Shown: positions 35,068-64,000 of the stretch, one piece after another
How positions within the stretch are numbered: position 1 is the first letter of the stretch
How the letters are laid out: each line of letters begins with the position of its first letter
Made by a program: the position numbers and the translations under genes
The notes under the pieces: generated by a model
Told to the model about the DNA's origin: nothing
The model's database searches: none
What the model saw: the letters and a program-made list of their open reading frames with translations, nothing else
Source of the DNA: Halichondria panicea
Lineage: Eukaryota > Porifera > Demospongiae > Suberitida > Halichondriidae
Length of the DNA stretch: 64,000 nt
Assembly (NCBI RefSeq): GCF_963675165.1
Contig: NC_087377.1
Location: 7,705,122-7,769,121 of the forward strand
Reading direction: 5' to 3'

Positions 35068-35140
35068 TACCATTATAATTATGAACATTTGCTTTTCCAG
35101 CTGAGTTGTTTAGAGATAAAACAAGATTTGATGCTCTTAC

Positions 35141-36110
35141 CAGTAATGCATGATGCTGTTTGGGTCGTACTCGGATTGCTCTGTTTCATTAATAGGAGTA
35201 TCAGTTTTACTCCTAAAAAATTGGTCACCAGCTTTTTGACATCCACCAATTCCGTTCCTCATGTTTTCTTTCCCAATGATGAATCGATAATGGTCACCTT
35301 CCTTCTGGCCCAGTATGTCCCAAAAGTTGGAGCGCTGGTGTTCGTGGTCTAATCCTAATACATGGCCGAATTCATGAATAACATTGCTTTTTTTGGCTTT
35401 GTCATCCAGATGGAGCAAGCTGAGGCTCATTGTAGCCCGACGACGATAGTTAGGGTCCAGGGCATCGTTTCCAACTAAAGACCAGCTCACAGTGTCTTTA
35501 GCTGCAAACGATCGACATGCACAAAAAGAATGAGCTGTATGATACGTATAACCTTGCAATACTAACTGCATAATTATATCATGTATACAGGAAGATCTAG
35601 AGGCTGCTGAATATAAAGGGTATAATAATTATTATGCTTCAGATCACCTAACTTTTGAATTGAGAATTCAATTCCCCTGAACCCGGTTGAAGTTAGGGGG
35701 TTTGTGAGAGAGATGATTACACGTATAGTTATTATCTGAAAAGAAGTGCCACGTAATTACTAGTCAAGGCCCCCATCCCTGCAATCACTACAAGGCAATA
35801 GCTAATCTGATAATGCCAGCAAAGATTTTTTTATAACTAACATGAGTCAAACCACACTCGAATGTGCGCATCCTGCTGCTGCTCTTTCATGATGGGGTCC
35901 AGAGAGATAATAGGGTAGAATTTAGAATTTTTATTCCACGGGTCTACCCAATCTAAAATTTGTGCAGGGTTTAACTGAAAACCACGATACGTCCAATTGT
36001 CTTCCGCAAGCACATTAGGATTCATGAAGTGGATCTTAAGTTCTTTGACAGCCCATAACTGGCTCAATCGCATTGACCCGTACAAGGCTTCAGGTGGTGG
36101 CTTGTCTGCT
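35141..36110 (-). CDS. Astacin-like zinc metalloprotease (partial)
   Basis: Two exons are clear: about 36110-35842 and 35501-35141, joined in phase 1 across a GTTAGT donor and TTTGCAG acceptor. The join restores IRVWFD|SSKDTVSWSLVG, the usual strand before the active site. The second exon has the full astacin signature VIHEFGHVLGLDHEHQR (HExxHxxGxxHE: three zinc-binding His and the catalytic Glu) and the Met-turn YDPNSIMHYW. It ends at GTAAGA just after the Met-turn. The first exon begins ...KPPPEALYGSMRLSQLWAVK; its start codon and any signal peptide are further upstream and were not found. A candidate first exon near 37063-37019 (ATG, GTAAGT donor) has the wrong phase. No exon follows the Met-turn before or after the MITE at 34665-35067, so the 3' end is missing or cryptic. 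The family is secreted or membrane-linked proteases; the substrate is unknown. Confidence 0.75.
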
Positions 36111-45091: not shown

Positions 45092-48000
45092 ATGCTTGCA
45101 AGAGTACTGACTGTGTGTTTGATGGTTGGAATATTAATGAGCAATGAAAGTAAGTGTGCACATGTGCATGCATGCAAGTATAGTAATGTTATTTAACACT
45201 TGATTTTAATGTAGTAGGCATATCCATCTCCATTACCATAACTTTATCTTAAATTGTGTCATTTCTGTCAGGAATAGCTAGAGTGCTATAACTTATTTTG
45301 ACCTGCTCAAGACATGCACGGTGCCGGTGTTGTGTATAGCTATCATTCACTTGAGTGCTGCTTTCTTTATACGCTGAAGATTTATTATAATATTTCATTC
45401 CCCGACTTGCACAACATGCAGCCAGTGCAACCTGCCCCCCACTACTTGGTGTAACAGATACTGACATCATATACACCCAAGAACCTGTTGTCAGTGGTAA
45501 CTTCTCAGTCGATACTAGAGCCTTGTACGAGTGCACTAGTGGAGAGCTTTTTGAGGGGGATACTATACGAACGTGTCTCGCTGATGGAAGCTGGTCTGGA
45601 GTTGAGCCCATCTGTCTTCGTGAGTGGAATTGCAGTGAATAAATGGCATTGTATAAAGTGCAACACATATAGGGGCACCATAAAACATGAAAATTGTACA
45701 AAAACTGGTCGCTTATTCGGAGAGGTTTGTACATGTACAATGTGTTTTGTGAAAAAAACATTTTTTGAAACATTTTTAATAAGGACATACATGCAGTTAA
45801 TTCTGGATGCATGTTATTGTATGTTTCAACTTTAACTTTAAATTAGCTGCCTGTTCCATACTAAGTCTGGAGGATGGTTTCGTATCCTACACCACTCTTC
45901 ACAATGCCAACGGAAACTTCCAGCTTGGGACTAAAGTCAATTTCACCTGTGTCACAAAAGGAACTGGACTAGATGGACCGCCTACCATCAATTGTACCAA
46001 TTCTGTTGACAATAGCGGCTGGAATGATGCTCCACCCACTTGTGAAGGTTAGTATGGCAACTAACCCATTCTTCACAAACAAAATTATAGGATAATTATT
46101 ACCGTCAACATAATATTTTGCTTAAGTGCACTAAGTATAATTTTACAGATATTACTTGCCCTCCACTGGAAGAAATAGCCAATGCAAAGTCTATCGAATA
46201 TGACTCTGGCCCTGACGTCGATGACAACTATCCATTTGGAACCGAGGCTTATTTCATGTGCAAACGTGGGTACAAGTTGAAAGGTCCAGATCACAGTCAT
46301 TGCAATGGCAAATCTAGTAATGCTACTGGAAGATTTCGTCCGTACCCACCGACTTGCAAACGTGAGTTGAGAATGCATGCATGTAATAATCATGACACTA
46401 TAATTATGATGTGGCATATTCCTCTCTAGTGCGTCGTCCATCAATTTTCAAGCAGCCTGAAGATGAACAGTTTGTCGAAGAGGGCTCGAGTGTGAAGTTC
46501 CGTGTGAAAGCTGATGGAAGAAATTTGATCTACCAGTGGTTTAAAGATTCCGAGATGATATTTGATATTGATGGAGTGTTCTCCGGTACTGACTCTCCTG
46601 TCCTGTATATTGAAAATGTGACTCTTGCTGAGGTTGGGAGGTATGCTGTCAACGTGTCCAATGACGCTGGCATAGATCTGTCAGATATAGTGACTCTTCT
46701 GACAAGTAAGGAATTAATAATGGTGATACGTGTGATTTTAAACTCTGTCTGCATTAAGTCCGGTTAATTACACTTAATTATCAAAAATTTTGGAATGCTT
46801 CTCTTTAATGTGTTTCCCATTGTAAGGCTAATTGGTGCTTGATAACTGCATTGCCAAGGACGGTACTAATTACCTGGTTTTCTTCTCATAGCATCCAGTT
46901 ACATGCTCAATGTGAGTGTCAACATTTCTGAGCCTACGCTTGAAGCATCGGAGCAGAGTATTGAGTATGTGGTCAGTCTGGGAAGAATTGATGGGAAAAG
47001 GATCCGATTTATTCCAAGACCACTTTTTGTCAAACTGGTGTCTTTTGGTTTTCCCGAGAATGTGACTGGTAAGATGCAGTACTACTGTGTAGTATTATAC
47101 GTACCCTGCATATTCACATAATTTGTTGCAAGCAAATAAAATGTGCCTATAATTATACCCACCCACATGAGTGGATCAATTATTTTGATCAATACAAAAA
47201 CCATTAATTTAAGAATAAAAGATAGAAACATTTCTACCCATGCACAGAAGAAGGAGATGACTTTGACCTCGGTTTCCACAGCTTTGTCTTTGGCCCGTGT
47301 CGACGACGTTGTATCCCTCCATTACTGTACAAGCCTGGCTTCATTTCAATCAGGGATGACAATGACTTGGAGTTTGACCACGAGTTCTATGTTGGGTTTG
47401 ACCCGGAATTTGTTAGCCTGTATGGGATATCACTTGGCGAACCTGAGAAAATCTACATCATTGATGATGGTAAAGTAGTTTGTGCTATAATTGTGTAATT
47501 GTGTTTTTCATCTTACTCGTGTGCTTGCTGCCAATTTTGTCAAACTATGTACTCTGCTGTTTTCTTATCTACAGAGCAATTAACTGTTGGGGTATCATTT
47601 GATCAAGCTAACTACATAATAGCTGAAGGGAACACCCTCACTGTTACTGGTAGACTCACCAGACTAACTGGACAGCTGAAGACCAACTTCTTTCTGACCC
47701 TCAAATTGGACTTTGATGTCGACCAAGTTACTAGTGAGTAGCACAGAAGTAAATCAAGCCTGGGGATGGATTGTGTTATGTGTGCCTGAATTTTTAACCA
47801 TGGATGATATTGTTGTGTGTGCATAGGCCTATACATGGCTTCATGCTATTGTGTTTAAACCAATCAACTAGAGTTACAAATTATTATAGACTTCTAACGA
47901 TTCAATGAATTTGTGAAATCAATACACTCTTTCCCTATGCAGATGCTAGTGAGATCATGATCTTTCCCGATGACCTCACCATCAATTTTCTGGCTGGAGA

Positions 48001-51000
48001 GGACACTAACTTCACAATATCCTTGACTGTTGAAGACAACAACAGGTTTGAGGGGTTTCACTCATTTGTCATATCTCTGCCAACTGACTCTGACTATATT
48101 GTACCAAGAGAGGACGATAATGGCAACACCACCATCACCATCAGTGATTTTGATGGTATGGCACTATGAAAGTTCTTTTACTGGTCCTAGCAACCGTGAC
48201 TTAAGAATGGCGTACCCGATTAGTCCACTAATATAGATTTCCAGACTGACACTTATACCTTATTAATTGGCGCCACTCTTTATAAGTACTGAGTAAATAG
48301 TTGAAATTGCTACTTCTCATTTCACTCTAGCAACCCATATCTTATGGCTTTCCATGTTATGAGAAGCCAGATTTATAGCATAGCATCATTAGCACTATAA
48401 ATGCTTCCATGCAGATGCTGTAATTCAAGTGTCAACAATGAGTCTGGAGGGTAATGAAGGAACAAATCTGACTGATGTCATCTGTGCTAGCCTCACCGTC
48501 TCCTCTACAAATCCCATCTTGAAAGATATTGAAGTTTCCTTTGAGCTTGTCGCTGGAATAGCAGGTACTCACTCATGTTAATTTTATGCGAGTTTGACGT
48601 TGCTGTACATGTAACAAGCCATAAAAATATGAGTATACGGGTTTGCTACATTAATAAATATAAGTGCAGGGCCCTACGGTATCAATAAAACTTGCTGGGA
48701 TGCATAATTATAATTTTTTTAAAGGTTTGTTTTGTCATTGTAAAATGGCCATTAATATCTATGCCTTCACCTCTACGCCTGCTAGTGACAGGTGTTAATG
48801 TTCCGTTGATTACTTCAGAATCAGTATAATGCACACCCCACGTTATATAACACCTCTCTATTATCAAAGGATAAATCAACTGTTTTATCTACAACAGATG
48901 CCAGCGACTATACTGCTATTGGCAGTCTCCAAACTATGTTTCCAGTAAACTCTGTTCCTGGTTCCACTCCAGACGCTTGTGTCACTGTTAGTCTGATCGA
49001 TGATGAAATTCTAGAGTCCACCCAGGAATTCTCAATCATTCTCAGCTCTGATAATGCACAAGTCAGTACTGACCGGATTGCAGTGGATATCATGGATGGT
49101 GAAGGTATGCATTAGGTTCTGGAGTGAATCTATAATGAGTAAACTGTTACAGTATTAGCTGCATGCCGGTTGGAATTTGCTATACATGTGTAATGGGTAT
49201 AATTATATGCATCAGCCTGCAGTTTTATTCACATTATCTACTAGCTTTCTCCGTCCATTACAGTATTGAATTTACCCCCTCTCAGACATCACTCTTCGAT
49301 TCACTGCCGATGAGATCATAGTCAAAGAGGGAGTAGACATGTACGCTTTGTTTCAGCTGGTAATGACTAATGTACCCTCTGGGGGCCTCGAGGGGACTAT
49401 TGAGTACACAGTTTTTGTCAGCCCAAGTGGTGCAAGTGAGTAGACAGTAGCGAAGAAATTGTCTGATTTTAACATGAATTTTGTAGAGTCCATATCACAA
49501 TCAGTAATAATTATGACGAATTGTTTGTTGCATCTGCAAAATGAAGTGTATTAATTACTCTAGAGATCATGCAGTGGATCTGATCTCATAATTACACATG
49601 CCTGCCCTCCTTGTGTATAGCATTGAACCAAGACTACCGCTCTAGTCGGACTGTGTCTCTGTTGTTTGGCACATGTGGTGAGATCACCCCTCAGGCTACC
49701 TTGGTGGGATCACTCTCCACTGTGGGGCAGGTGGAGATAGTGAATGATGAGGTGCTAGATAGTAACTCAGAGGACATCGGGTTGTTCTTGTTAGAAACTG
49801 GCAATTTTGCGCTATTGACAATCATCATATTGGATGATGAAAGTAAGCAGTAATATTTGCATGTATGACATATAAAAAATTTACATGCACGCTTAATTTG
49901 TGTCATTCTATTGTTTTCGCTAGCAACATTCACTAAGGATGCATGACACTACTCATACATGTATACAGTCTGATATCAGCATGCATGCATATCCATTCAA
50001 AACCTGCATGTTCTCGTGCTACATTGCTCAGGGGCTACACTTGTGTTTGAGTCTCCCAGTTACACAGCAGACGAGGGATCAAGTGTTACCCTCACTCTAG
50101 CACTAAGGGACATACCAGCAGATGGGCTGGACGATAATGTCATTGTTTCTCTACAGACAATTGATATCGGGAAAACTGGCCGTACTTATTATTAAATGCC
50201 CGTCACATGTCTATACAATCATGTAGTGGTTTTTAGGCAAGCACTTACATATCAGTACGTGCTGTAAAAACGTGAAGCAGAAGGGATCATGAACTATTTT
50301 TATTATAGGTATATATCTCAAGCTGTACTGCATGCATGACAGTGTTGGTTATTATAATTATGCAGCTACTGGCATCGACTACGCTCCCCCTTCTTTCTTT
50401 CAAGTGACTTTTCTGGCCACTACCCCTTCACCCACCAATATGTCACAGACATTCGTCATTGCTATATTGACAGATAATGTATTAGAAGACCTTGAGCTAT
50501 TTGAAGTGGTGGTATCGGATGTTAACTCTCTGTATGTGGTATGCGACAGTGAGGCTGACTGTACAACTCAAGTGGTCATTGAACAGGAGGGATCTGATTG
50601 TGAGCAGTGTGTATATAATTATAGATCGACTGACAGACTAGTGAAAATAGTTTTGTTTTACTACAGTACTTTACTATAAACACAGAGAGTATAATAGTCT
50701 TTCCCTGTAATTTTGGTGAATGTTGAATGTACAGAGGACCATTTTGTTTTTTTACATGCAGAAATGTTCATGTAGAATTGGTAAATTCTTTCATCATAAT
50801 AAGTTTGTGAAGTTGCTGATGGTCTTGCATGCATGTCTTATACGTATATACATACAGTATAGAAATAATTGCGTGTACAAATCTTTTCACAGTACCTAGT
50901 TGGAACCTTTTACCAGCCACTGGTACAGAGGGTGACACCGTTGCAGTGTGTGCTACCCTGTTCGGGTTGCCAGCTAATGGTTTAGAGTGTGACTTTGTGC

Positions 51001-54000
51001 TACAATTGATCATCTCCGAGGAAACCATACCAAACACAGGTACACACTTGTTATTTTATCATACTACGCGTGGGGGATACAAGTTTGTGTGTACTGATTT
51101 GTTCCTTAACTCGAGTGTACATTGTATACGTTATATAGATCATAATCAATCCTATAGCTACTGAAGGAGAAGACTTCACTCCTGTTGGGGACTTTCAGAT
51201 AGTGTTTGAGAGCACTATACCAACCATGACCACCATGAGATATGCTCAGATCAACCTCACTGATGACAATACCACTGAAGGAGATGAAATATTCTTTGTG
51301 ACGGTGTCTGAAGTTACTCCATCTTTTGTTTTATTTGCTTCCAGTAACTTCACTTCTGTCAACATCCAGGACAATGACAGTGAGTCTGCCCATAATAGCA
51401 GTTGTGTGTGATCGAGGACATCAATATCAGTTTGAACGCACAAGCACATGCTTTACTATACACATAATATTTTTACTTTTTTATGCAGTTGTTTGTGACC
51501 TAAGCTTTGTGTCGACCAGTTACACTGTGAGAGAGGATGAGGGTTCTGTCAGCGTGTGTGTCAGCATCTCCGGAGTACCCTCTGGTGGGCTGGCTGTGGA
51601 CTTGGTGGTGGAATTCAGTTACTTGGCCAGCGACAAAACTAGTGAGATTTATTCCTAGTCTGTTGCTACCTGAACTTTTGAACACGCTGACTTATAATTA
51701 TGTACGCAGCACATTTTTAGCATTGAGGTATTCCCGTAATTCTTGTCACATCAACTAAAAGCCCGATTCTCTTTCCAATTACATGCAGTGCCATGTATTG
51801 ACAGAATGCATGATTTTCATTTCTTCAGCTTCAGATGTTGATTTCACTCCCGACTATGAGGTAGTGTTTCCAGCTGGGCTAACTGGTAGTGGTTGCATTC
51901 AATGCCTAGATATTGCTATTATGAATGATGCTATGTACGAGGGAGATGGTCAGCTGTTCAATGTGTCTTTTGATGAGAACAATCTGAACGTTTCATTTTC
52001 TGGTGACTCTCTGGCAACTGTGTACATTTTAGAGGATGCTAGTGATGGTACGTCCACAGGTCTCTAATTAGTGGTTCAGCACACTCTTATAAAGTATTCG
52101 TAGGTGTGCATGCTCGTTCTAGAGAAGAAGAATGTATCCATGCATTTTTAATGAGCAATATGTATTTATACCAGTCTTTCTTACTGAGATGTCATCATGC
52201 ATTAATTCCTACTCTCTGCATGCAGTGCCTGCCGTGAGCCTTAACTTTGATCAGCTGACTGTGATAGAGGTTGAAGGAGTGGTGAGTGTGTGTGCCACCA
52301 TTTCTAGTGTACCTGCAGGCGGTCTGAATTGTCCCATCACGCTCTCCCTGTCAGCAACCGGCACTGGAGACAAACCAGGTATTATTAAGTTGTTCTGTGG
52401 AGCCTATTATATATATAGACTCTGATATTGATACAATCTAGTATAAGTGTACAAGTTTGATAACAGTGAAACCTCAAGGAACTTGTACAAATGTCATGAC
52501 TGTAGTTTGTCAATAAGGTCATAACACTTATATATTATACACGTATGCAGCCACTGACGGAGAGGACTATGTTCTACCCGGGGACTTCCAGATTGTGTTT
52601 GACACTAATGTCCTATCAGGTGACTCAGAGTGTGTCAATATCAGCATCACTGATGATGAGCGAGTGGAAAATGAACAGGAGTTTGTTGTTATGGTGACCA
52701 GCATATCATCACAGGTTGAGCTACCTGGATTTACTTCAGTGTACATCACAATTGAAGACGATGACAGTGAGTCTGCCCACAAATGATGTAGCTTTGTTCA
52801 ATTGATTATTGCTTAGTTAATGATCTTTACCCATCTCATTATAAAGTGAATGGAGTCATTTGGCACATTGTTGCCTATACATCACTGTAGCTGCAGTGGC
52901 TTCCTTCTCTCCTGGCGGTATCACAGTAACTGAGTCTAACTTCATTAATGCTACTGTGTGTGTGGAGCTGACCTCTCTCCCTACTGGTGGATTGGAGTGT
53001 GACGTCGATATCAGCTTGTCTCCGAGCTCTGGATCAGCAGGTATGCTCTAGTATGATATCTATGCTTCTGTGTCTATCATTGTTCATAATTATAGCTATA
53101 TTATGCTCATTGGAAAAGAATGTAGTTCTCAGCCTATTTTGTTTTGCACTGTGGTTGACACCTATCACAAGTGTCTTAAAATATGCAGCACTCAATGAAG
53201 ACTATGAAAGTTTTGTACTTGTCATAACTATCCCTGCTGGAACCAGTCTGAGTCAACCAGTGTGTGCCTACTCCGTCCAGTTGGGTATCATCGATGATCA
53301 GATTGTTGAGGATACTCAATCATTCACCCTTTCTCTCGTAACGGCCTCCCCTGAAGGCACTGTCAATAGTAGTGGTGTCTTAGAAATCAATATCATGGAT
53401 GATGACTGTGAGTTTACACTAGCGCTAGCTGAATGTACGTACATTGTATGTAATAGTTTTAATCATCCATGTATTTTTACGTTGCAACAGTCGTTGAAGA
53501 AGCCAACGTTATTTTTTTTACTGTTGTTGTGTGTGTCTCAGCTAAATAGCAGGATTGAAATTTTTCCAGATTTGTTTGTGGACCTCCAGTCATCTGAGTA
53601 CCTCCTGAATGAGGGCAAAAATGTTCCTGTGTGTGTATTGTTCTCCAGTCAGTTGCAGCGATCGGTCACCGTGAGCAGCCACTACGAGGACCTCACCAAC
53701 CTACTCAGAGGTGCTGGTCGATTGCATATAATTATATTATAGTGGGGTAACGTATTATAATTATATGCCGTATTCATAAGAATCCGATGCTATAGTGTAT
53801 CGTTTATTTATACATTCGCTTTCTCAAAAAGTTGATTCTGTCTGCATGTAGCAAGAAACTGTTGCCAGTTGAAGTAAATGCTATAATTATTTTCTTATAC
53901 CAAAATGCCATCTTCGCCTGTAATAATTATATGTGACGGTATAAAAAATTTCATTGTGTAAAATATATACATTTGCAGGAGAAGTAAGGTTAGGTATTAC

Positions 54001-57000
54001 TGGCCCATTGTACCTGATTGGAGCTGGTGCTAGCTCCACCAACACAGTGGAGCCAGGGATGGTGTGTGTGTCAAAGAACAACAAAGAAGACACTGTGAAA
54101 GAAGGAACCACACTCTCTGTACTCAGACTAAACAGCTCTGAGATGGCTGTGAAGATTGGTTGTAGGCAAGCGCTGTTCATCGAGACTGCTAATGATGGTT
54201 CGTCGTACAATTTTATAACTTGAACAATTGTGGCCATACTGACAGAAATAGTGTTTGCATACTATAGAGGTTGTTCTGTGTGCTGCTGCACTAATGGTTG
54301 TGATGTTTTTCCTCTCCAGTCGTGTTGGCTGAGTTGGTCACTTTGAGTCCAATGGTGTATGAGAATGAGGGTGCGGTTGAAATATGCGTGCAGCTGGACC
54401 ACCTACCAGTGGGAAGTATCGTCACCGTGGCACTGACAACACAACCTTTGATTGCTACAGGTATCCATGCAGCAAATTAATGACTTATCAGCACCCAGCT
54501 GATGTATAATTTATGTAGTGTATGCATGCACATCTTGCGTGTGGTTATTTTCCCCATCAAAAATGGTTGGTGGTGAAGCCTCAAAGGTTCACACAGCTAT
54601 ATACCCTCTGCTCTCACTGCTACCCACCCCCACAGAAGATGAGGACTACCTGTCATTAACTGCAACCCTAGAGTGGCACTACGACTCCCCCAGCGTGGTA
54701 CAGTGTGTAAGTGTGCCCATCATCAATGATGAGTGTGTGGAAGAGAAAGAAGAGGTGTTCACCGTCTCTCTGTCCACGGAGCAGGCGTGTGTTCAGTTGG
54801 GGGCTAATCTGACAACTGTCACCATTCAAGACGATGATGGTGAGTACAGTATATTAAATAGCTTAGTATAAATTAATATGCAGTACTTGCATGTGCCGAG
54901 AATGATCGAATGCATTAAGCAATCTATCTAATTTTATAATTATGTATGCTACTTTAAAAGTGTATGTTTGTCAACTAGTAAGAGTATTTTGTCATCTTCT
55001 TACAGTGCTGGTACTTGACTTCAGACCAGTTGGTGTTATTACTGAATCCAATGGCATGGTGGACACCTGTATCTATGTTTGTGATGGCCAACTGAAGAGA
55101 AATTCCTCCATCACTGTCAGCTTCTGGAATGGAACTGCTCAATGTGAGTACATTTCTTATTATGCTTGTACATTATGGCTGGGGTGAAAATCCATGTGTT
55201 GGGTTCTTAAAACTCTGCATACACATGTACATACAGTATCTATAGGCTCAAAAAGGTATAATCAAGTGTTTCTCCTACTTTGATTTTGTCGTAAGATTTG
55301 TAGCTACGTATTTGTCAAATTGTTCTATGCTTATCTGTGCAGCAGGTATGTCTCGATTTAATGCTTGTTCACCCTACGTTACTTAGACCCAGCAGACTTC
55401 ACCAGGCCTCTTCTATCTGAAGAAGTGGTTCTCACGCCAAACAACACTGCCAGGTGGCTCTGTCTACTGAGGATGAATGTGTACTGTTTAAGGAATCATC
55501 TGTTACACTGGATATTGTGGACAATGACTGTGAGTGTATGTATATCCATATGCATAATTATATTATTAGTGAAGATTGTAATAATTTTGTTATGCTGTAT
55601 TGCTGTTTTTGTCAGTTAGCCTATGAAATGAAGAATGGCTCGATCCGAATTAGTTTGTGATTGTAATCATCGCCACAAACACAATGAAACCTACATTGTA
55701 TCTGCTACGCTAAACTTCTTAACTTTGTCATCCCAGGTGTTAACATTACCCTATCCCATGAGCTGTATGCTGTATCTGAGAGTGATGGTTTTGTGGAGGT
55801 ATGCGTGAGTCTGGAGGGAGAGACGGAGGTCACAGTCGAGGCATCTGTCTTCACCATAGCAGGATCTGCTCAAGGTGAATAATAATATATTATTATCAAT
55901 GTATAAATCGAGGGCCTAGTGCGTGATATACATACTGTGTTTTACGCCTATACTACTTAAGTCTGCTCGGTAATTATTAGCGGAGGATTAGCAATTACTT
56001 TAGTGCCAGTGTATACTAGCTAACCAATTGTACTTCGCGACTGTTATGCACTATCGTTCAAAGCATGATTTCCTTCCTACACACGCACAGCTGTGGCTGA
56101 CTTCACTTTCGGTGACACTGACCTGGGATCATCTCTTCTGTTTAGCAGTCCGGGTGAGCAGTGTCTCAACCTCACCATCCAGATGGACTCAGCACTGGAG
56201 ACCAACGAAGACTTCTATGTAGTGCTGCTCTCACAGCAACTAGCTGTTAAAGTGCTCCAGAGGTCCGCTCAAGTCATCATTTTAGACACACCAAGTAAAG
56301 ATGCACAATTGTATATGCAATGTAACTGCACTGCGAAGAACATTATAGAAGTTGAATTTTTATGTCAAGTATAGTTATAAATATGTATCCCATCACTTCA
56401 GGAAATTTGTTGAGGGAATAAACACCTCAATCGGCGTTTAATGTCTACAATTTATTCAGTAGAGGGATTGATTTACTAATAATTATAAGAACAGAGCGGT
56501 GTTTCAAATAATTGTATATATGCCTTTTTCATACTAATAATTATCAATGCTATCCGTCTCCAGTTGTGACGGTGGCGTTCCAGAAGACCAGACTGGAGTT
56601 GCCTGAGGAGGAGTCTGGAGAAGGGACAGTGTTCCAAGTGTGTGTGGAGGTGCTCTCTCCTGGGATCCTCGAGAGACCAGTGGACGTCTACCTCACTCTG
56701 GAGGAGGGTTCCGCTACTGGTGAGGGTCTGATAACAAGTCTGTATGTCACAGCAAACCTAATTATGGAAATCACAAATCTACACATCAGCTCATTAGCTT
56801 ATTTGAATGGGTTGTGAGTAAGGTTGCTCCTTCCAATGACTTCTTCCCTCTGTAGCTGATGTTGACTACGTGGACACACAAGAGGTAAACACAGTGGGTC
56901 TCACCATCACCACACCCCTCCTCTCTGGTCGACGGAGGCGCAACGTCTCACCGTTTGTCCAGTGCACTAATCTCAGTCTCCTGGCTGACTCCATTGTGGA

Positions 57001-60000
57001 GGAGGATGAGAGCTTCAATGTGATTCTGGGCTCCTCTGACAATGGAGTCAGTGTGGACCCCACTCCCCTCATCGTGGTCATACTGAACAATGACTGTGAG
57101 TTCTTTGAGGGCTATAGTGCTGCATGTACATATTATATGTATGCAGTTATGTTTTGAGCGGTATTCTTTATTTCCTGTTTCGGTAGAGAGTGTATGCTTA
57201 ATTATGTGATTAACTGAAACCTACCTGTGCAATGTTGACTACCGTAATTTTCGTGGGGTAAAATATTCGTTATTTTCGTGGGCAGGCTGACCTCCACGAA
57301 ATTTTAGCGTAGGCGTGGCTTATCGGAACGTAGGAATGCCGTGCAGCCACGAGACTAAACGAAATTTTTACTCACGAAAACCACCGTTTCTCGAGTTGAA
57401 CGAATTTCTTACCCCACGAAACTTACCCGCTATACGGTATAAGTTTTATTAGACTGTGCAATTAGTGGTTGCCTTTCACTTCGGACAACTTTTACTTGCT
57501 TTCCCAACTAGCTAATTATATTGTTGTGTGTTTGATCGACATTTTCTTGCTTGTAGTTGCGAATGTATCTCTGGAGCTTGCTAATTACACTGTGGGGGAG
57601 GGTGACGGGTACGTGACTGTGTGTGCCTCTCTGGAGGGGGTCCTGGAAAGGATCATCATCGTCAATATGACCACCACTGAGGACTCAGCACTTGGTGAGT
57701 CTCTTTATAATTATAGTCCTTATATAGACCATGCTACATGTAGCTCATATACGTGTGTCAATAAACTAGATACATTTTTCTGTCATAATATAGCAATATA
57801 TCTTTAGCAAAAACCCAGGTCTGTATATAGGTTTTCCCCCACCCAGCCATCAGTGACTACTCTGCTCTCACGGACTACCCTCTTCAGTTCTCTGCAAGTG
57901 TGGACACTGCTTGTGTGAATGTCTCCATCTTGGAGGAGGACATCGTTGAGCCTGACCAAGTGTTCCAAATATATCTAGCCAGCTATGATCCAGTTATCCT
58001 CACTCCCAATTCATCAGCCTCTGTGACTATTCTGGATAATGATGGTGAGTCAATTCCTATGGGGTGTCATGCATTAATTTTACATACACGTGTAATTACA
58101 ATTAAAGCAAACCCTGCATGCACATTCAAACATGTGTATACCAGTCCTATATAATATACTTTGTGGTAAATTACATGGCCATGATGCGTACTATGTATTA
58201 ATTGTCAAATTGATTTGCTAGATCTGTTTTCACATACATCTCTTATAATCCAGTGCTAGGTATTGGTCTCAGCTCAGCATCAGTGATGGCTAGTGAGGTG
58301 GCATCTCCTCTCTCTGTTGCCGTAGTGATTTTGTCTGGCAGTCTGGAACTAGATGTCACTGTCAGTGTGGCAGCATTCAGTTGGGTCAATGACACTGCCA
58401 CTGAAGGTGAAGGGAGATACGTGTGTGTCTATAGTGTCTGATTGAGATAATAGTTACATTGACCAGTATATTCCTCAGCAAGTGTGTATAGTATCCAGTT
58501 TTTCATGATTATGTTTTCAAAATAATGTGTAGTCGAGAACTTGAAGGGAGATACGTGTGTGTCTATAGTGTCTGATGTTGAGATAATAGTTATATTGACC
58601 AGTATACTCCTCAGCGAGATTTGTGTATATATATAGTATCCAGTTTTTACTCGAGTGTATAGATAATTCGTAGTCAAAAATTTCTTATGATATATAAATG
58701 TTGCACACAGATTTCGACTATCGGTCATTGAACAAAACCATCACCTTCACTTCTGGGTCAGGGGTGGGCTCCATGGAAACCTTTGATGTCATCATTATCA
58801 ATGACATCATTGTAGAAGAATTGCTTGAAACATTCACACTGAGGCTGACCATACCCACTGGAGCACCTGTTGCCGTGATCGGACTGGAGGTGGCCACTGC
58901 ATTCATACAAGAGGACCTTACTGACAGTGAGTTGTCAACTCAGTGTGTGTTATTCATGACTGGAATCATGTGGACGCATCTAATATAGTGGGTACTCCCT
59001 AGGTCGAGAAAGCAAGTGGTTTTAACTGACTTAGAGCGTATCAGTTTTAAGTAGTTTAGTTTCGTGTTAGTTTAGGTTAGAGTGTATGAGGTATTATGTT
59101 CTAAAGGAAGATTGTGTGACCAGGAGTGAAAACTATTATAGTAATGTTTTCAATTTCTAAACAGTCTCCACTTTATTGTTTCTGTACATCCCAAAGGTGT
59201 GACTGTGAGTTTGAATGAATCTAGCTACGTACTGACTGAGGGAGAGGGTGTGGTCATATGTATGGAGCTGGTGGGAGTGCTAGAGAGAGATGCTGCTGTA
59301 AATATCACCACTGTGGATAGCACTGCAACAGGTAGAGTCAATAGTACGGCTAATCAAACTTGTGTATCATTCGTAAGTAATTCTTATGTGGAGATATAGC
59401 CTCAATCCCAGGCTGCACTTTCCTCAGTGCTACTAAATGAGCAGTTTTTAAAAATGGACCGTCCTTATGTAGAGTTTAAAAAAAGTGTGGAACCATGGAA
59501 AGTAACATGAGGCTTGCAGGGGTCAGGATTAACTTGCCGCAGGAAGGCTGCACAATAAATGCCTAAACAGCTTGATGGTTGTACAACATATCTGCGACTC
59601 TGTGACGGGATAATGTACATGCATGCAGTCCCTCATTTCCAATTCCCACGTGTAATTCAACTGTCTTTCTCCCCGGCAGTGTTGGACTACATTGATATCT
59701 CTACCACCCTCACATTCTCTTCCGGCACCTCGAGTGCCTGTGTGCAGTTATCGACCATTGACGACAGTACGTACGAATCTACAGAAGGGTTGAGTGTAGA
59801 GCTGGAGTCCACTGACTCCCAAGTCACTGTAGCCACTCCCTCCGTACTCGTCACTATAGTGGACAATGATGATGGTCAGTAGTAACAACAGAGCTTCAAT
59901 GTACATGTACAGTATTTTATTATATACAACACAATTAATCGTACTTGTGCTAGTTATAAATGTATCCCACATGTGTAGAACTTTTAGCGACAGTACTATA

Positions 60001-62858
60001 CTCATAATCTAGATCATGTTTGCCATAAATACTGCAATTTGATTGGCTAAAGGAAGTGTTCTATCCAACTTAGAAAATCATGTACTTCACTTAGAAAATC
60101 ATGATTAGATAAGAACATTCAAATCTGATTGGCTAAATACTCATGGTTGCTATGATCTAGACACTGTTTGGGAAGTTTCCATATGATTTAGAAGTCCTCA
60201 GGGCTAGTAGAACCCTCACTGCGTTCGGGATACTACAACTAGCCCTTTGGGCTTCTAAATCATGTAGAAACTTCCTAAACAGTGTCTAACTATTATATAT
60301 ACGCTACCAAATAAGAGTCAAGTTGTGTACATAATTATGTAGTTTTGCTTAAATGCCAGAAGTGCAAGATCGTTTGTTTTCACTATTTTCTCTCCCCCTG
60401 CATGTAGTTGTGCTTTCCCTGTCTGCCCCTGAGTTTGTGTGTGAAGGAGATGGTGTCGTGCAGATCTGCGTCACCTTGGAGACTGACATTGAGAGAGATG
60501 TGGAAGCTACCATAGAGACCGCTGATGCATTCGCAATTGGTAAATCCTATTGGTACAATGCTATAAAAGCGTTGAGGTATCAACTGTTTATTTGTTGGGA
60601 GGGCTATCCATACTAATTATTACTGGTACTGTATACACAATAGATGCACAGTAATAGGCATACTCTGGTTACTGAAGACCTATATACACATGTCGTTGCA
60701 TACATTATAATTATGCACAGCTTATACATTATTCCACCTACACATACTCTCAGATTCTGAAGATTACCAGAGTATTACCGTCACCTACTCCTACTCCGCC
60801 CCCCTATCTTCCCCCCTTACCAACTGCACACTAGTGACAATACTCGACAATGACATTATCGAGCCATGTGAAGACTTCAGGGCCAACCTTAGCTCACCCT
60901 CTGAGAGAGCGGTGCTCAGTCCAAGCTCACTGAGTATCATCATTCATGATGATGAAGGTAAGGGGGGCTATTTTAAGCAATGATGAGGTGTTAATGTTTC
61001 CTCGTGCATGTATTCTGGAAATAGTGGTCATTATTTGTTATTTTGTTTCTAAGGCACCCATTCTAATGCTCCAATTTGGTATGTAAGTATTAATAATTAT
61101 TCTCTTCAAAGGTCACATCTATATATTTGGATGTGTGCCAAATATGTACATAATGATATAGGCTCAAATTGTTTATCCTGACTTGATCAGTATTAAATTG
61201 CTCTGCATGTATATGCAGAGAGAGTTCAAAACAGCCAATTTGCTATTCACCTGTCCCTACTTGTATGTAGACATCACCTCCCCTCTGTTGTTGTTCAACA
61301 ACTCACCTCAAATCAGTGGGAGCGATCTGACAGCCTACTACAACCTGACGGGCTGTGCCAGGGTCACTTGTGAGGTCAGGAATCAACAAGATTGTGAGTT
61401 CTTATAAATTAATACAATACAGTATAGGACGTGTCGTTTACACCAATTTTAATCATTAAATGTTAGTGCATGAAGTCTAATAAACTTTGCAAATACCAGT
61501 CACGGTATACTGCTGTCACAATAATTATTTTAGTGTAATGTCGTTCAATAACTGTCAATAACTGGAGTTATTGAACTCTGATAGATGTAAAAGTGCACTG
61601 ACTTATAAAAACAGCTACAAAATGTTCCAGGTATACAATACCTAAAAGTATTGACATCTAGAAGGTTCTACATCTATTAATATTTTGCCAAGGTCCTAGT
61701 GATTTTCTAAATAAAATTCCTATAGTATATAATAGTGTATGCATGATTGTAATAACACTCTGTTCCGCAGGTTCTCAACCTGTCGGTAGTTTCGAGGGTG
61801 TGTGGTTTGGACAGAATGCGATCAATAGGAGGACACTGCAACAGTTTGCTATTATCGTGGATGCATACTGTCCCAACCAAATAGTCCCAGTGTTCGAGGA
61901 CAGGCCAATCAGAGGTGGTGAGTCTTTCAATTAACAGTCACTCAGTAAGATACTGTACGTAATATAGGTGATGCAAAGACTGTACATGCATGTACTATGA
62001 TTCAGTATTTATGAAGATGCATTCTGTCTGTTCTGAGACTCTCCAACTTATACAGATAATACTCAGTGCAGTCAGCACTTCACTGACCAACAGTATGAGT
62101 TTGACCCCGTCTCTGGAAATGTGACTGTGGAGTGGGAGGGAACTGGACCCGATGCAACTGTTCAAGTTAGCCAGTTTATGTGCAGGTTACCTAACACAGA
62201 CACATTTTCGTGTAAGTTCAGAAGAAAAACTGACTTTAGTCTGCGTATAAGTAACCGTATAGCGAGTAATTATTTTTGTATGGTGGATTTTCGTATTGTA
62301 GAGTCATCTGAAAATTGATCTACCTAACCGCAATAGGTTCTACGTCACTAGAGTTGTATGAATATTCAAAAAACAAAATATTTAATTGGATATATATAAT
62401 TATATAGTTGGTACAAAAATGTCCACTAACGAACCCGCTATATACCGTATAGCGTGTAATTTTCGTGGGGCAAAATATTCGTGGTTTTCGTGGTTGGTGA
62501 TCTGACCACGAATATTTTACCCACAAATGAAGCGACCTTGCCTACCTTACCTGCAGTGCAAGCTCCAACCATGAAAATATTACCCACAAAATGTCTCAAT
62601 ATTGCTGAACCGCGAATATTTTGTCCCCCGAAAATTACCCGCTATACGGTAGTATAATTTTGTGTAGTGCATAATTATAAATCATAAAATAACCGTATTG
62701 CTTTGTGATCACGTTATTTCGTATTTTTATCCAATAAAGGTGTTAGTCCCCTTGTTATCACCGGTCTGTCCTCTGGAAGCCACACCCTCTTAGTCACACC
62801 AGTGGGAATCAGTGGGTGTACAAGGATGGTCACTAGGAGCTTACTCATAACCATCTGA
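45092..62858 (+). CDS. Giant secreted CCP/Ig/Calx-beta protein, 45 exons
   Basis: Joined exons give about 7.95 kb of coding sequence, roughly 2,650 residues, ending with TGA at 62856. Order: signal peptide (45092-45149), three CCP domains, one Ig-like domain, about 18 Calx-beta units each coded by a short plus a long exon, and four tail exons. All introns are phase 1 with GT/AG ends. There is no membrane segment and no GPI-type tail, so a secreted, Ca2+-binding matrix or adhesion protein is expected; Calx-beta domains bind calcium. Arrays of Calx-beta repeats are the hallmark of demosponge aggregation-factor core proteins. The resemblance is real, but a VWD domain was not seen and the tail was not recognised as the wreath domain, so this is aggregation-factor-like and not proven. 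One exon (55387-55529) is 143 nt and shifts the frame. The start rests on the signal peptide and on phase agreement with the next exon. Confidence 0.8.
45422..46361 (+). other. Three CCP/sushi domain exons
   Basis: Exons 45422-45619, 45847-46047 and 46149-46361 each code one complement-control-protein module with four Cys. Landmarks are TCPPLLG...ALYECTSG...RTCLADGSW...ICL; ACSILSLEDG...VNFTCVTKG...INCTNS...PTCE; and ITCPPLEEIANAKS...AYFMCKRGYKLKG...HCNG...PTCK. One exon per module with phase 1 at both ends is the usual CCP gene structure in animals. The modules may bind partners at the N-terminus of the Calx-beta rod. Confidence 0.9.
46430..46705 (+). other. Ig-like domain exon lacking the disulfide cysteines
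   Basis: The 92-codon exon reads as an I-set-like Ig domain: PSIFKQPEDEQFVEEGSSVK, then YQWFKD with the core Trp, and VTLAEVGRYAVNVSNDAG where canonical domains have (D/E)xGxYxCxVxN. The B-strand position reads KFRVKA and the F-strand YAVNV, so both Cys are missing. Phase 1 at both ends. Confidence 0.8.
55387..55529 (+). pseudogene. Broken Calx-beta C-half exon (out-of-frame deletion)
   Basis: Entered in phase 1 it reads YPADFTRPLLSEEVVLTPNN then TAR. From about 55454 the expected sequence resumes in another frame: VALSTEDECVLFKESSVTLD then IVDND and a GTGAGT donor. The central strand with the acidic DD...E..E.F motif is missing. The exon is 143 nt, against 195-240 nt and a multiple of 3 for every sister exon. 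About 58-61 nt appear to be lost at the CCAG|GTGG junction. It may be a real mutation, a haplotype or an assembly collapse. Confidence 0.8.
57240..57439. mobile_element. MITE in Calx-beta gene intron, TACCGTA...TACGGTA ends
   Basis: The left end TACCGTAATTTTCGTGGGG matches the inverse of the right end CCCACGAAACTTACCCGCTATACGGTA apart from an 8-base insertion. The interior (TTATTTTCGTGGGCAGGCTG, CGAAATTTTTACTCACGAAA) is related to the element at 62443-62651. Confidence 0.75.
58408..58650. repeat. Intron tandem duplication next to an exon end
   Basis: A block starting GAAGGGAGATACGTGTGTGT at about 58409 recurs at about 58543 with TCTATAGTGTCTGATT/GTTGAGATAATAGT, CCAGTATAnTCCTCAGC and AGTATCCAGTTTTT. 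Copy 1 begins right at the donor of the exon ending 58406, so the duplicate carries donor-flanking sequence into the intron. Confidence 0.75.
60155..60295. repeat. Inverted repeat in Calx-beta gene intron
   Basis: TAGACACTGTTTGGGAAGTTTCCATATGATTTAGAAG (from 60159) pairs with CTTCTAAATCATGTAGAAACTTCCTAAACAGTGTCTA (to about 60288), with further pairing GGGCTAGTAG/ACTAGCCCT. About 55-bp arms, short loop; a foldback element. Confidence 0.75.
61271..62858 (+). other. C-terminal Cys-containing module of the Calx-beta protein
   Basis: Exons 61271-61393, 61771-61917, 62056-62211 and 62740-62858, phase 1 throughout and then a TGA, code about 181 residues. Landmarks: DITSPLLLFNNSPQISGSDL, YYNLTGCARVTCEV, GSFEGVWFGQNAINRRTLQQ, FAIIVDAYCPNQIVPVFED, VTVEWEGTGPDATVQVSQF and ITGLSSGSHTLLVTPVG. 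The last two segments have a beta-sandwich, fibronectin-like feel. I do not recognise the family. No membrane anchor follows. Its first exon is duplicated at 63892-64000. Confidence 0.75.
62443..62651. mobile_element. MITE in last Calx-beta gene intron
   Basis: Ends TACCGTATAGCGTGTAATTT and AAAATTACCCGCTATACGGTA. The interior has repeated TTCGTGGTTTTCGTGG/CCACGAATATTTTACCCACA pairs. Same end family as 1387-1610. Confidence 0.85.
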
Positions 62859-63647: not shown

Positions 63648-64000
63648 TTAATTTTGTCACTTATAATTTTTGTTTCTAGGGCACCTATTCTATTGCTCCA
63701 ATTTGGTACGTACGTATCAATAACTATTCTCTTCAAAGGTCACATCAATCTGCATTTATGCAACTGTGGTGTTATAGATATAGGCTCTTAGAAATTCAAC
63801 TTAATTGTTGATCCTGACTTGAAGTATTACATACGTACAGAAAGAGTTTATTTGCTATAAGTTTTTCCCTGTTCCTATATACTTGTATGTAGACATCACC
63901 TCCCCTCTGTTGTTGTTCAACAACTTGCCTCAAATCAGTGGGAGAGATCTGACAGCTTACTACAACCTGACAGGCTGTGCCAGAGTAACTTATAAGGTCA
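63648..64000 (+). CDS. Second copy of the tail-exon region (partial, runs off window)
   Basis: 63648-64000 is colinear with about 61040-61384: GCACC(C/T)ATTCTA(A/T)TGCTCCAATTTGGTA, TTCTCTTCAAAGGTCACATC, TTGTATGTAGACATCACCTC and the exon start. The exon frame from 63892 is preserved: DITSPLLLFNNLPQISGRDL then TAYYNLTGCARVTYKV, where the Cys of VTCEV is now Tyr. The copy may be the tail of a tandem paralogue or a 3'-end duplication; the next exons lie outside. Confidence 0.75.

What the first reader, a model, noticed from the sequence alone, without database searches (positions are those of the whole stretch)
45092..62858. Aggregation-factor-like Calx-beta protein with a CCP3-Ig head and a strictly phase-1 exon code
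Seen: 45 exons, all reconstructed introns phase 1, about 18 Calx-beta units each built from an N-half exon (132-177 nt) and a C-half exon (195-240 nt, one broken at 143), a signal peptide, three CCP modules, an Ig-like exon, a unique tail and no membrane anchor. Known: demosponge aggregation-factor core proteins are Calx-beta arrays involved in cell adhesion and linked to allorecognition. Inference: this is a related or variant family in which a CCP/Ig head replaces the VWD or wreath parts, well suited to exon gain and loss between individuals.
Basis: partly seen in the sequence, partly recalled or inferred. Interest (0 to 1): 0.75.

Follow-up and report, generated by a model that had tools for sequence, protein, structure and literature searches.

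The report
Sponge protein: variable head, fixed stalk
A demosponge gene encodes a large secreted protein with a small binding-type head on an 18-part calcium-binding stalk; a related gene in the same genome keeps the stalk parts one for one while heads differ greatly between relatives, a design suited to cell adhesion or recognition whose function has not been tested.

Summary
A gene search with intron phase left free recovers one gene at 45092-62858 with every intron in phase 1; the final table has 45 exons: signal peptide, three CCP, one Ig, 18 two-exon Calx-beta units, four tail exons. Controls give nothing comparable. The genome is a silicatein-bearing demosponge's. No VWD was found in this gene, and Calx-beta and NIDO-VWD stretches lie at another locus, so "a head replacing VWD" is not supported and aggregation-factor membership is not shown. 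Instead the gene belongs to a clustered family with a shared tail unknown to PDB and, in this gene, to Pfam. In paralogue F1 the 18 units match the window's 18 one for one, despite near-saturated synonymous divergence; F3 gained one unit, F4 lacks eight, F2 has two or three. Heads range from 3 CCP exons to about 34, with recent near-identical copies. Gain and loss concentrate in the head. Local copies of the 3' half are damaged. The window gene has one exon broken by a 64-nt deletion absent from two near copies. Expression, polymorphism and function are untested.

The parts
45092..45149 (+). Exon 1, signal peptide (MLARVLTVCLMVGIL...)
   Evidence: Free-phase gene search, table; signal peptide judged by eye
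45422..45619 (+). CCP1 exon, 198 nt
   Evidence: Best Sushi stretch
45847..46047 (+). CCP2 exon, 201 nt
   Evidence: Probably the second Sushi stretch, whose place is not printed; cysteine pattern by eye
46149..46361 (+). CCP3 exon, 213 nt (the gene search had cut it at 46265)
   Evidence: Pfam Sushi E 1.7e-9 with the full exon
46430..46705 (+). Ig exon, 276 nt
   Evidence: Pfam Ig_3 / I-set
46892..47469 (+). Calx-beta unit 1 (46892-47068, 47248-47469), divergent
   Evidence: no Pfam hit; best hit of F1 unit 1
47575..48155 (+). Calx-beta unit 2 (47575-47733, 47943-48155)
48415..49104 (+). Calx-beta unit 3 (48415-48564, 48898-49104)
49286..49842 (+). Calx-beta unit 4 (49286-49435, 49621-49842)
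50032..50599 (+). Calx-beta unit 5 (50032-50181, 50366-50599)
50893..51379 (+). Calx-beta unit 6 (50893-51039, 51158-51379); start moved by hand from 50917
51489..52047 (+). Calx-beta unit 7 (51489-51641, 51829-52047)
52226..52766 (+). Calx-beta unit 8 (52226-52378, 52551-52766)
52891..53407 (+). Calx-beta unit 9 (52891-53040, 53189-53407); end moved by hand from 53434
53570..54197 (+). Calx-beta unit 10 (53570-53710, 53979-54197); the calcium-site aspartate is lost, yet it is among the best conserved units
54320..54839 (+). Calx-beta unit 11 (54320-54460, 54636-54839)
55006..55529 (+). Calx-beta unit 12 (55006-55143, 55387-55529); C-half broken by a 64-nt deletion absent from two near copies
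55737..56294 (+). Calx-beta unit 13 (55737-55874, 56091-56294)
56564..57095 (+). Calx-beta unit 14 (56564-56719, 56856-57095)
57557..58044 (+). Calx-beta unit 15 (57557-57694, 57847-58044)
58254..58926 (+). Calx-beta unit 16 (58254-58406, 58711-58926)
59197..59874 (+). Calx-beta unit 17 (59197-59331, 59680-59874)
60408..60957 (+). Calx-beta unit 18 (60408-60539, 60754-60957)
61271..62858 (+). Conserved tail, four exons T1-T4 (61271-61393, 61771-61917, 62056-62211, 62740-62858); no PDB relative, no Pfam hit in this member, no membrane anchor seen by eye
63893..64000 (+). Start of a second, decayed tail (T1' to T4', running to about 65013 beyond the window): stops in T1' and T2', acceptor of T2' lost

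Best explanation
This is one gene for a large secreted modular protein (about 2,600 residues without the broken exon) of a demosponge: signal peptide, CCP1-CCP2-CCP3-Ig head, a stalk of 18 Calx-beta domains, and a family-specific C-terminal tail. Shown: the anatomy, the phase-1 exon rule, kept calcium-site residues, a paired-cysteine pattern, the family with variable heads, and purifying selection on the stalk over the divergence of the family. Inferred: in seawater calcium the Calx-beta units form a stiff rod, the tail docks to a fixed partner in the matrix or on cells, and the CCP/Ig head presents the binding surface, so that paralogues with different heads would offer different recognition or adhesion surfaces on one scaffold. 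Phase-1 borders let whole domains be added, lost or skipped without a frame shift; that happened mostly in heads and, in blocks, in the stalks of paralogues F2, F3 and F4. In the window copy, skipping the broken unit-12 exon, or the whole unit, would keep the frame.
For: Anatomy and phase. Family: 19 places with the third tail exon, the gene's own included. Stalk order: F1 units 1-18 have window units 1-18 as best hits in order, 18 of 18, with small margins at units 12 and 17; a tree joins window and F1 units of the same position at 14 of 17 testable positions, 13 of them well supported. Selection: dN/dS 0.28 window-F1 (dS 1.6, near saturation), 0.37 F1-F3. Heads: 3 CCP exons here, 34 exons between two Ig exons in F1 (23 of 34 hit my CCP profiles), 10 in F3, 13 in F4 (11 of 13 hits); F2 has 15 Ig-type exons (11 of 15 hits) and 9 exons that hit CCP profiles. 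Nine CCP triplets of F1 are 93.5-99.7% alike. Calcium sites: E, D and E kept in 16, 15 and 16 of 17 units, by eye; profile match of 8 of the 18 units to sodium/calcium exchanger domains, E 6.5e-17. Cysteine pair: both in 10, neither in 5, one only in 2 of 17 units, Fisher p 0.003.
Against: No transcript, protein or binding data. One exon is frame-broken, so the assembled allele may give a truncated protein. Against its near copies the exons are no more conserved than the introns (98.0 v 98.1% for D2, 97.3 v 97.4% for D3), and changes on the window branch are 5 synonymous to 8 non-synonymous, too few to show present constraint. Signal peptide and lack of a membrane anchor were judged by eye. 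The paralogue gene models are automatic, with a codon table trained on the window gene; first exons of F1, F3 and F4 were not found and some tails are misread. Nothing ties the head to a ligand.
Confidence: 0.6

Rival explanations
1. It is a true variant of the sponge aggregation-factor core family, carrying a CCP/Ig head in place of VWD or wreath parts.
For: Demosponge; secreted-type Calx-beta array; clustered paralogues on C1. [quoted passage not shown]
Against: No VWD in the gene at E up to 1; Calx-beta exons and a NIDO-VWD stretch stand at a separate locus whose six read units show no positional match to this array; the tail has no PDB relative and no Pfam hit in this member. The defining paper is not held.
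Confidence: 0.15
2. It is a plain structural matrix protein: a spacer rod with adhesive ends, with no part in self or microbe recognition.
For: The stalk is conserved in number and order between the window gene and F1 and is under purifying selection; the pooled CCP triplets of F1 show pN/pS 0.47, not positive selection.
Against: Heads vary from 3 to about 34 CCP exons and from 1 to about 15 Ig-type exons, with recent near-identical copies, which a plain spacer would not need.
Confidence: 0.25
3. The window gene is a recently inactivated member: the 64-nt deletion in unit 12 truncates the protein, and the locus is decaying like its local copies.
For: The deletion is absent from both near copies; local copy D3 has 5 frame-broken exons, a lost donor and no unit-17 N-half, D2 lacks the head and has a frameshift, and the second tail has stops; window branch 5 synonymous to 8 non-synonymous changes, and exons no more conserved than introns.
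Against: The other 44 exons are open with GT-AG sites; phase-1 exons can be skipped in frame; the deletion may be one allele.
Confidence: 0.2
4. The stretch holds two or more separate genes, for example a CCP-Ig gene and a Calx-beta gene.
For: No transcript evidence in hand; D2 and D3 consist of the 3' part alone.
Against: Paralogues F1, F3 and F4 show the same order of Ig, Calx-beta units and tail; splice phases chain throughout; introns are short (at most 533 nt).
Confidence: 0.05

Closest known systems
Sponge aggregation-factor core proteins (Amphimedon AF cluster, Clathria MAFp3/p4)
   Same: Demosponge, secreted, Calx-beta, gene cluster (cluster and extracellular Calx-beta: PMC10815962 passages; the rest recalled)
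   Different: CCP/Ig head, no VWD found, unidentified tail; wreath domain not testable here
Calcium-binding domains of sodium/calcium exchangers (SLC8, Drosophila Calx)
   Same: The Calx-beta fold; best solved relatives of the units (3rb5, E 6.5e-17); calcium-site letters align
   Different: Exchangers are membrane transporters with two such domains (recalled); the units here carry a cysteine pair that the aligned exchanger domain lacks at those places and form an 18-unit array
Adhesion GPCR V1 (ADGRV1/VLGR1)
   Same: Long extracellular Calx-beta arrays (recalled)
   Different: No GPS, 7TM or EAR module found in the joined protein at E up to 1; no sequence of it was held for a tree
CCP-rich proteins of the complement-regulator and SVEP1/CSMD type
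   Same: Tandem CCP exons in phase 1 (recalled)
   Different: CCP modules here are joined to Ig and Calx-beta modules and an unknown tail

Membership tests
Sponge aggregation factor (AF) | Array of Calx-beta domains | tested here: met
   14 Pfam Calx-beta stretches, 18 exon-pair units
Sponge aggregation factor (AF) | VWD domain (recalled as typical of the Amphimedon genes; not every AF may carry one) | tested here: not met
   No VWD in the joined protein at E up to 1; the 21 VWD matches of the genome lie elsewhere, for example C5:853 kb
Sponge aggregation factor (AF) | Wreath domain | not testable with these tools
   No hit of that name in the Pfam scans; whether Pfam holds such a model was not checked; the defining paper is not held
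Sponge aggregation factor (AF) | Found in demosponges | tested here: met
   Four silicatein-type exons with serine at the active site; best solved match of the one searched is silicatein alpha 6zq3; that silicatein marks demosponges is recalled
Sponge aggregation factor (AF) | Clustered genes | tested here: met
   Tail or Calx-beta hits clustered at C1 7.76-7.97, 15.27-15.42 and 16.2-16.4 Mb
Sponge aggregation factor (AF) | High polymorphism between individuals; proteoglycan core of the aggregation complex | not testable with these tools
   One assembly only, no reads, no protein
Adhesion GPCR V1 (VLGR1) | GPS and seven-helix membrane part | tested here: not met
   No such Pfam hit in the joined protein; last exon ends in a stop without a hydrophobic anchor, by eye
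Sodium/calcium exchanger | Exchanger membrane domains | tested here: not met
   No such Pfam hit
Calx-beta domain family (PF03160) | Profile match above cut-off and calcium-site residues | tested here: met
   over cut-off for all three parts of the protein; residues; unit 1 alone has no Pfam hit

The most novel reading that the evidence does not exclude
A demosponge recognition system apart from the aggregation factors: a clustered family of secreted proteins that set swappable, recently amplified CCP/Ig heads on one ordered 18-domain Calx-beta stalk with a new C-terminal docking domain, diversified by in-frame gain, loss and skipping of phase-1 exons, and used in allorecognition or microbe recognition.
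Probability: 0.25. Interest if true: 0.8.

Novelty: new variant of a known kind. Interest (0 to 1): 0.5.

Why it matters
Sponge self-recognition and microbe discrimination still lack well-defined receptor families beyond aggregation factors, SRCR, NLR and similar sets (recalled). If the variable-head, fixed-stalk reading is right, this family gives a concrete, testable candidate with an obvious variable part (CCP/Ig head) and an obvious constant part (stalk and tail). It also shows a long repeat array whose units have kept separate identities and order through an old gene duplication, against the expectation that such arrays turn over freely.

Tried and rejected
Rejected: (1) phase 1 as an artefact of my search: other DNA of the window, the minus strand and shuffles give only short, low-scoring chains. 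(2) The second tail after the gene as an alternative 3' end: it has stops in two exons and a lost acceptor. (3) D2 and D3 as sister genes with other heads: no CCP or Ig exon of the window's kind was found in the parts fetched, save one weak CCP1-profile hit (E 0.01) at C1:7837753, past the second tail of D2, nor in the genome search with the head, which scored 94 of 1982 candidates, and both copies are damaged. (4) Identifying the organism by mitochondrial genes: only a nuclear COX1 fragment was found. (5) Naming the tail: no PDB relative at E up to 1; Pfam gave weak hits (Kre9_KNH 0.0019, NUC153 0.0077, Phostensin 0.16), each to one of five members and none to the window's own. (6) Comparison with VLGR1 and with other sponges: no such sequences held. 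(8) Literature: eight searches, seven with Calx-beta (with aggregation factor, wreath, scavenger receptor and immunoglobulin, sushi, intron phase, genome, domain architecture) and one with aggregation factor, Porifera and allorecognition, listed no paper whose title or abstract start describes a CCP/Ig/Calx-beta family of this make; subscription papers are not held. I saw passages of PMC5450542, PMC8242945, PMC6208332, PMC11229196 and PMC10815962, no whole text. What I say of the 2017 aggregation-factor gene family paper is recalled.

Full report
What was checked. The window is C1:7705122-7769121 of a 131-Mb, 39-contig genome. A free-phase gene search of mine gave a single chain from 45092 to 62858 with 44 exons and 43 of 43 introns in phase 1 at exon cost 11; at cost 8 it gave 48 exons with 43 of 47 introns in phase 1; an earlier version with cost 3 and a lower minimum exon length broke into 107 pieces in mixed phases. 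With the phase forced at cost 8, phase 1 scored 683, phase 0 212 and phase 2 227. Nine other 12-kb tiles of the window (four plus, five minus strand), the minus strand of the gene region and five first-order shuffles scored 9 or less; the tile that holds the first part of the gene scored 343 with 28 of 28 introns in phase 1. The codon table of these controls was trained on the gene, which favours it. The final table has 45 exons. I adjusted three exon ends by hand: CCP3 to 46361 (then a Sushi hit at 1.7e-9), unit 6 to start at 50893, unit 9 to end at 53407; and I added the broken exon 55387-55529. All 44 introns are GT-AG, 68-533 nt.

Domains. Pfam at E up to 1 gives two Sushi stretches, Ig_3/I-set and 14 Calx-beta stretches, no VWD and no membrane-receptor part. 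Unit 1 has no Pfam hit and is called Calx-beta from its exon pair and its match to paralogue units. Eight of the 18 units, aligned, match sodium/calcium exchanger domains (3rb5, E 6.5e-17), and the conserved E, D and E line up with the same letters there; that these are calcium ligands is recalled. By eye they are kept in 16, 15 and 16 of 17 units (unit 12 left out). A cysteine in the N-half goes with one in the C-half: both in 10, neither in 5, N only in 2 of 17 (p 0.003); in one of the two odd units a C-half cysteine lies close by, off the column. In F1, F3, F4, G1, G3 and G4 the counts of both, N only, C only and neither are 12-1-0-5, 12-1-0-5, 7-1-0-2, 4-0-0-2, 6-0-0-7 and 19-0-0-0; these are related and so not independent. 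It suggests a disulfide inside each unit that ties the two exon halves together.

Organism. Four exons of the cathepsin family carry serine at the active site with silicatein-type letters (three at C2:655-669 kb, one at C6:204 kb); the nearest solved protein to the one I searched is silicatein alpha 6zq3. I take the genome for a silica-making demosponge; the species is not known.

Local copies. The 3' part (window about 53.0-63.3 kb) recurs 60.8 kb (D2) and 184 kb (D3) downstream, mostly at 83-98% identity. No head exon of the window's kind was found in the parts fetched there, save one weak CCP1-profile hit (E 0.01) at C1:7837753, past the second tail of D2, nor in the genome search with the head, which scored 94 of 1982 candidates. 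D3 has five frame-broken exons, a lost donor and no unit-17 N-half; D2 begins in a decayed unit 9, has a frameshift in unit 10, large inserts and one exon (unit-16 N-half) not fully aligned. A second tail just past the gene has stops and a lost acceptor. On gap-free exons, unit-12 C-half left out, dN/dS is 0.30 for window-D2 (1049 codons), 0.30 for window-D3 (815) and 0.21 for D2-D3 (765), but exons are no more alike than introns (98.0 v 98.1%, 97.3 v 97.4%), and the window branch has 5 synonymous and 8 non-synonymous changes. So past constraint is indicated, present constraint is not shown.

The broken exon. The C-half of unit 12 lacks 64 nt that both near copies have; in D2 the exon reads 207 nt. 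F1, F3 and F4 also have a unit at this place that my models read as intact. The deletion therefore arose in the window copy or allele. If the exon is used, the protein ends early; if it or the whole unit is skipped, the frame is kept because all borders are phase 1.

The family. The tail query hits 52 places; its third exon is found at 19 places, seven of them (own gene and relics included) at C1:7.76-7.97 Mb, ten elsewhere on C1, two on C4. I sampled four paralogues. With the same free-phase search (codon table from the window gene) their introns were in phase 1 in 73 of 74 (F1), 51 of 51 (F3), 36 of 38 (F4) and 33 of 33 (F2); the exceptions in F1 and F4 lie in their tails. Other loci gave 16 of 16 (G1), 25 of 26 (G3) and 27 of 28 (G4), and the NIDO-VWD stretch G2 8 of 10. 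The phase rule is thus general for such genes in this genome, and phase 1 is the usual phase of shuffled extracellular modules (recalled).

Fixed stalk. Best hits of F1 units 1-18 are window units 1-18 in order, 18 of 18; margins are small at unit 12 (46 v 44 bits, only half of the window unit being usable) and unit 17 (49 v 47). F3 follows the same order with unit 16 doubled; its unit 1 was read only after the later fetch, and its unit 12 had window units 17 and 12 tied. F4 lacks units 3-7 and 14-16; the unit at place 12 hit unit 17 slightly better than unit 12, and that at place 17 beat unit 15 by one bit. F2 has units matching 17 (weakly) and 18 before the tail and perhaps one more that I read by eye. 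A tree of 61 units (17 window, 18 F1, 26 other: 6 G1, 13 G3, 7 of 19 G4; F2, F3 and F4 not included) joins window and F1 units of the same place at 14 of 17 positions, 13 with strong support; 14, 15 and 17 are unresolved, columns are few, and the bootstrap had not settled. Stalk divergence window-F1 is dS 1.6, dN 0.45, ratio 0.28; F1-F3 dS 0.21, ratio 0.37. The array was thus complete before the old split and has been kept in number in the window gene and F1, though not in F4 and F2.

Variable head. The window head is CCP1-CCP2-CCP3-Ig. F1 has 34 exons between two Ig exons, 23 of them hits of my CCP profiles and the rest not matched but CCP-like by eye in the stretch printed, with nine triplets of 207+225+210 nt at 93.5-99.7% identity (pN/pS 0.47). 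F3 has 10 CCP exons (one of only 111 nt) before its Ig. F4 has an Ig, 13 exons (11 hits) and an Ig. F2 has 15 Ig-type exons (11 hits; one unmatched kind was checked and is Ig in Pfam), in part three near-identical triples and a fourth sharing two of the three exons, then 9 exons that hit CCP profiles. First exons of F1, F3 and F4 were not found, so these are minima.

Reading. The best-supported account is a secreted modular protein with a binding head on a calcium-stiffened rod and a docking tail. The rod, the docking and any recognition role are inference. A Calx-beta-domain gene was down-regulated after microbial patterns in the sponge Aplysina aerophoba (table passage in PMC6208332), which only shows that such genes can respond. 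The aggregation-factor reading is not filed: VWD is absent here and sits near other Calx-beta exons (C5:833-856 kb: LDLa-like just below cut-off, Calx-beta, then NIDO, VWD, C8-3_MUC4; the two pieces were fetched apart and not shown to be one gene); wreath could not be tested.

Noticed in passing
G000 C2:269000-278900 (-), L033: Eleven consecutive, near-identical whole Calx-beta units, each one exon of 342-348 nt, 405-409 bp apart: a recent amplification in which the intron between the halves is absent.
   Followed up: partly
G000 C1:6379654-6443722 (-) and C5:2062198-2079538 (-): Many Ig-type exons in tandem, several with identical scores, found as hits of the window's Ig exon; they look like other large Ig-exon arrays.
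   Followed up: no
G000 C5:833000-856000, L030 and L031: LDLa-like and Calx-beta exons followed some kilobases on by NIDO, VWD and C8-3_MUC4 domains; a better place to look for aggregation-factor-like or mucin-4-like genes.
   Followed up: partly
G000 C1:16366000-16383000, L012: F2 head: three near-identical triples of Ig-type exons (357+279+243 nt) about 1.27 kb apart, and a fourth that shares the first two exons.
   Followed up: partly
G000 C2:655500-669000 and C6:199900-206500, L024-L026: Clustered silicatein-type exons with serine in place of the catalytic cysteine.
   Followed up: partly
G000 C6:2382998-2383231 (-): A Calx-beta hit inside an open frame of 10,065 residues.
   Followed up: no
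window 35137-35628 (-): Open frame with a metalloprotease-like HEFGHVLGLDHE motif, read by eye as astacin-type.
   Followed up: no
G000 C1:5280527-5280718 (+): Fragment of mitochondrial COX1 in the nuclear assembly, with two in-frame TGA.
   Followed up: no
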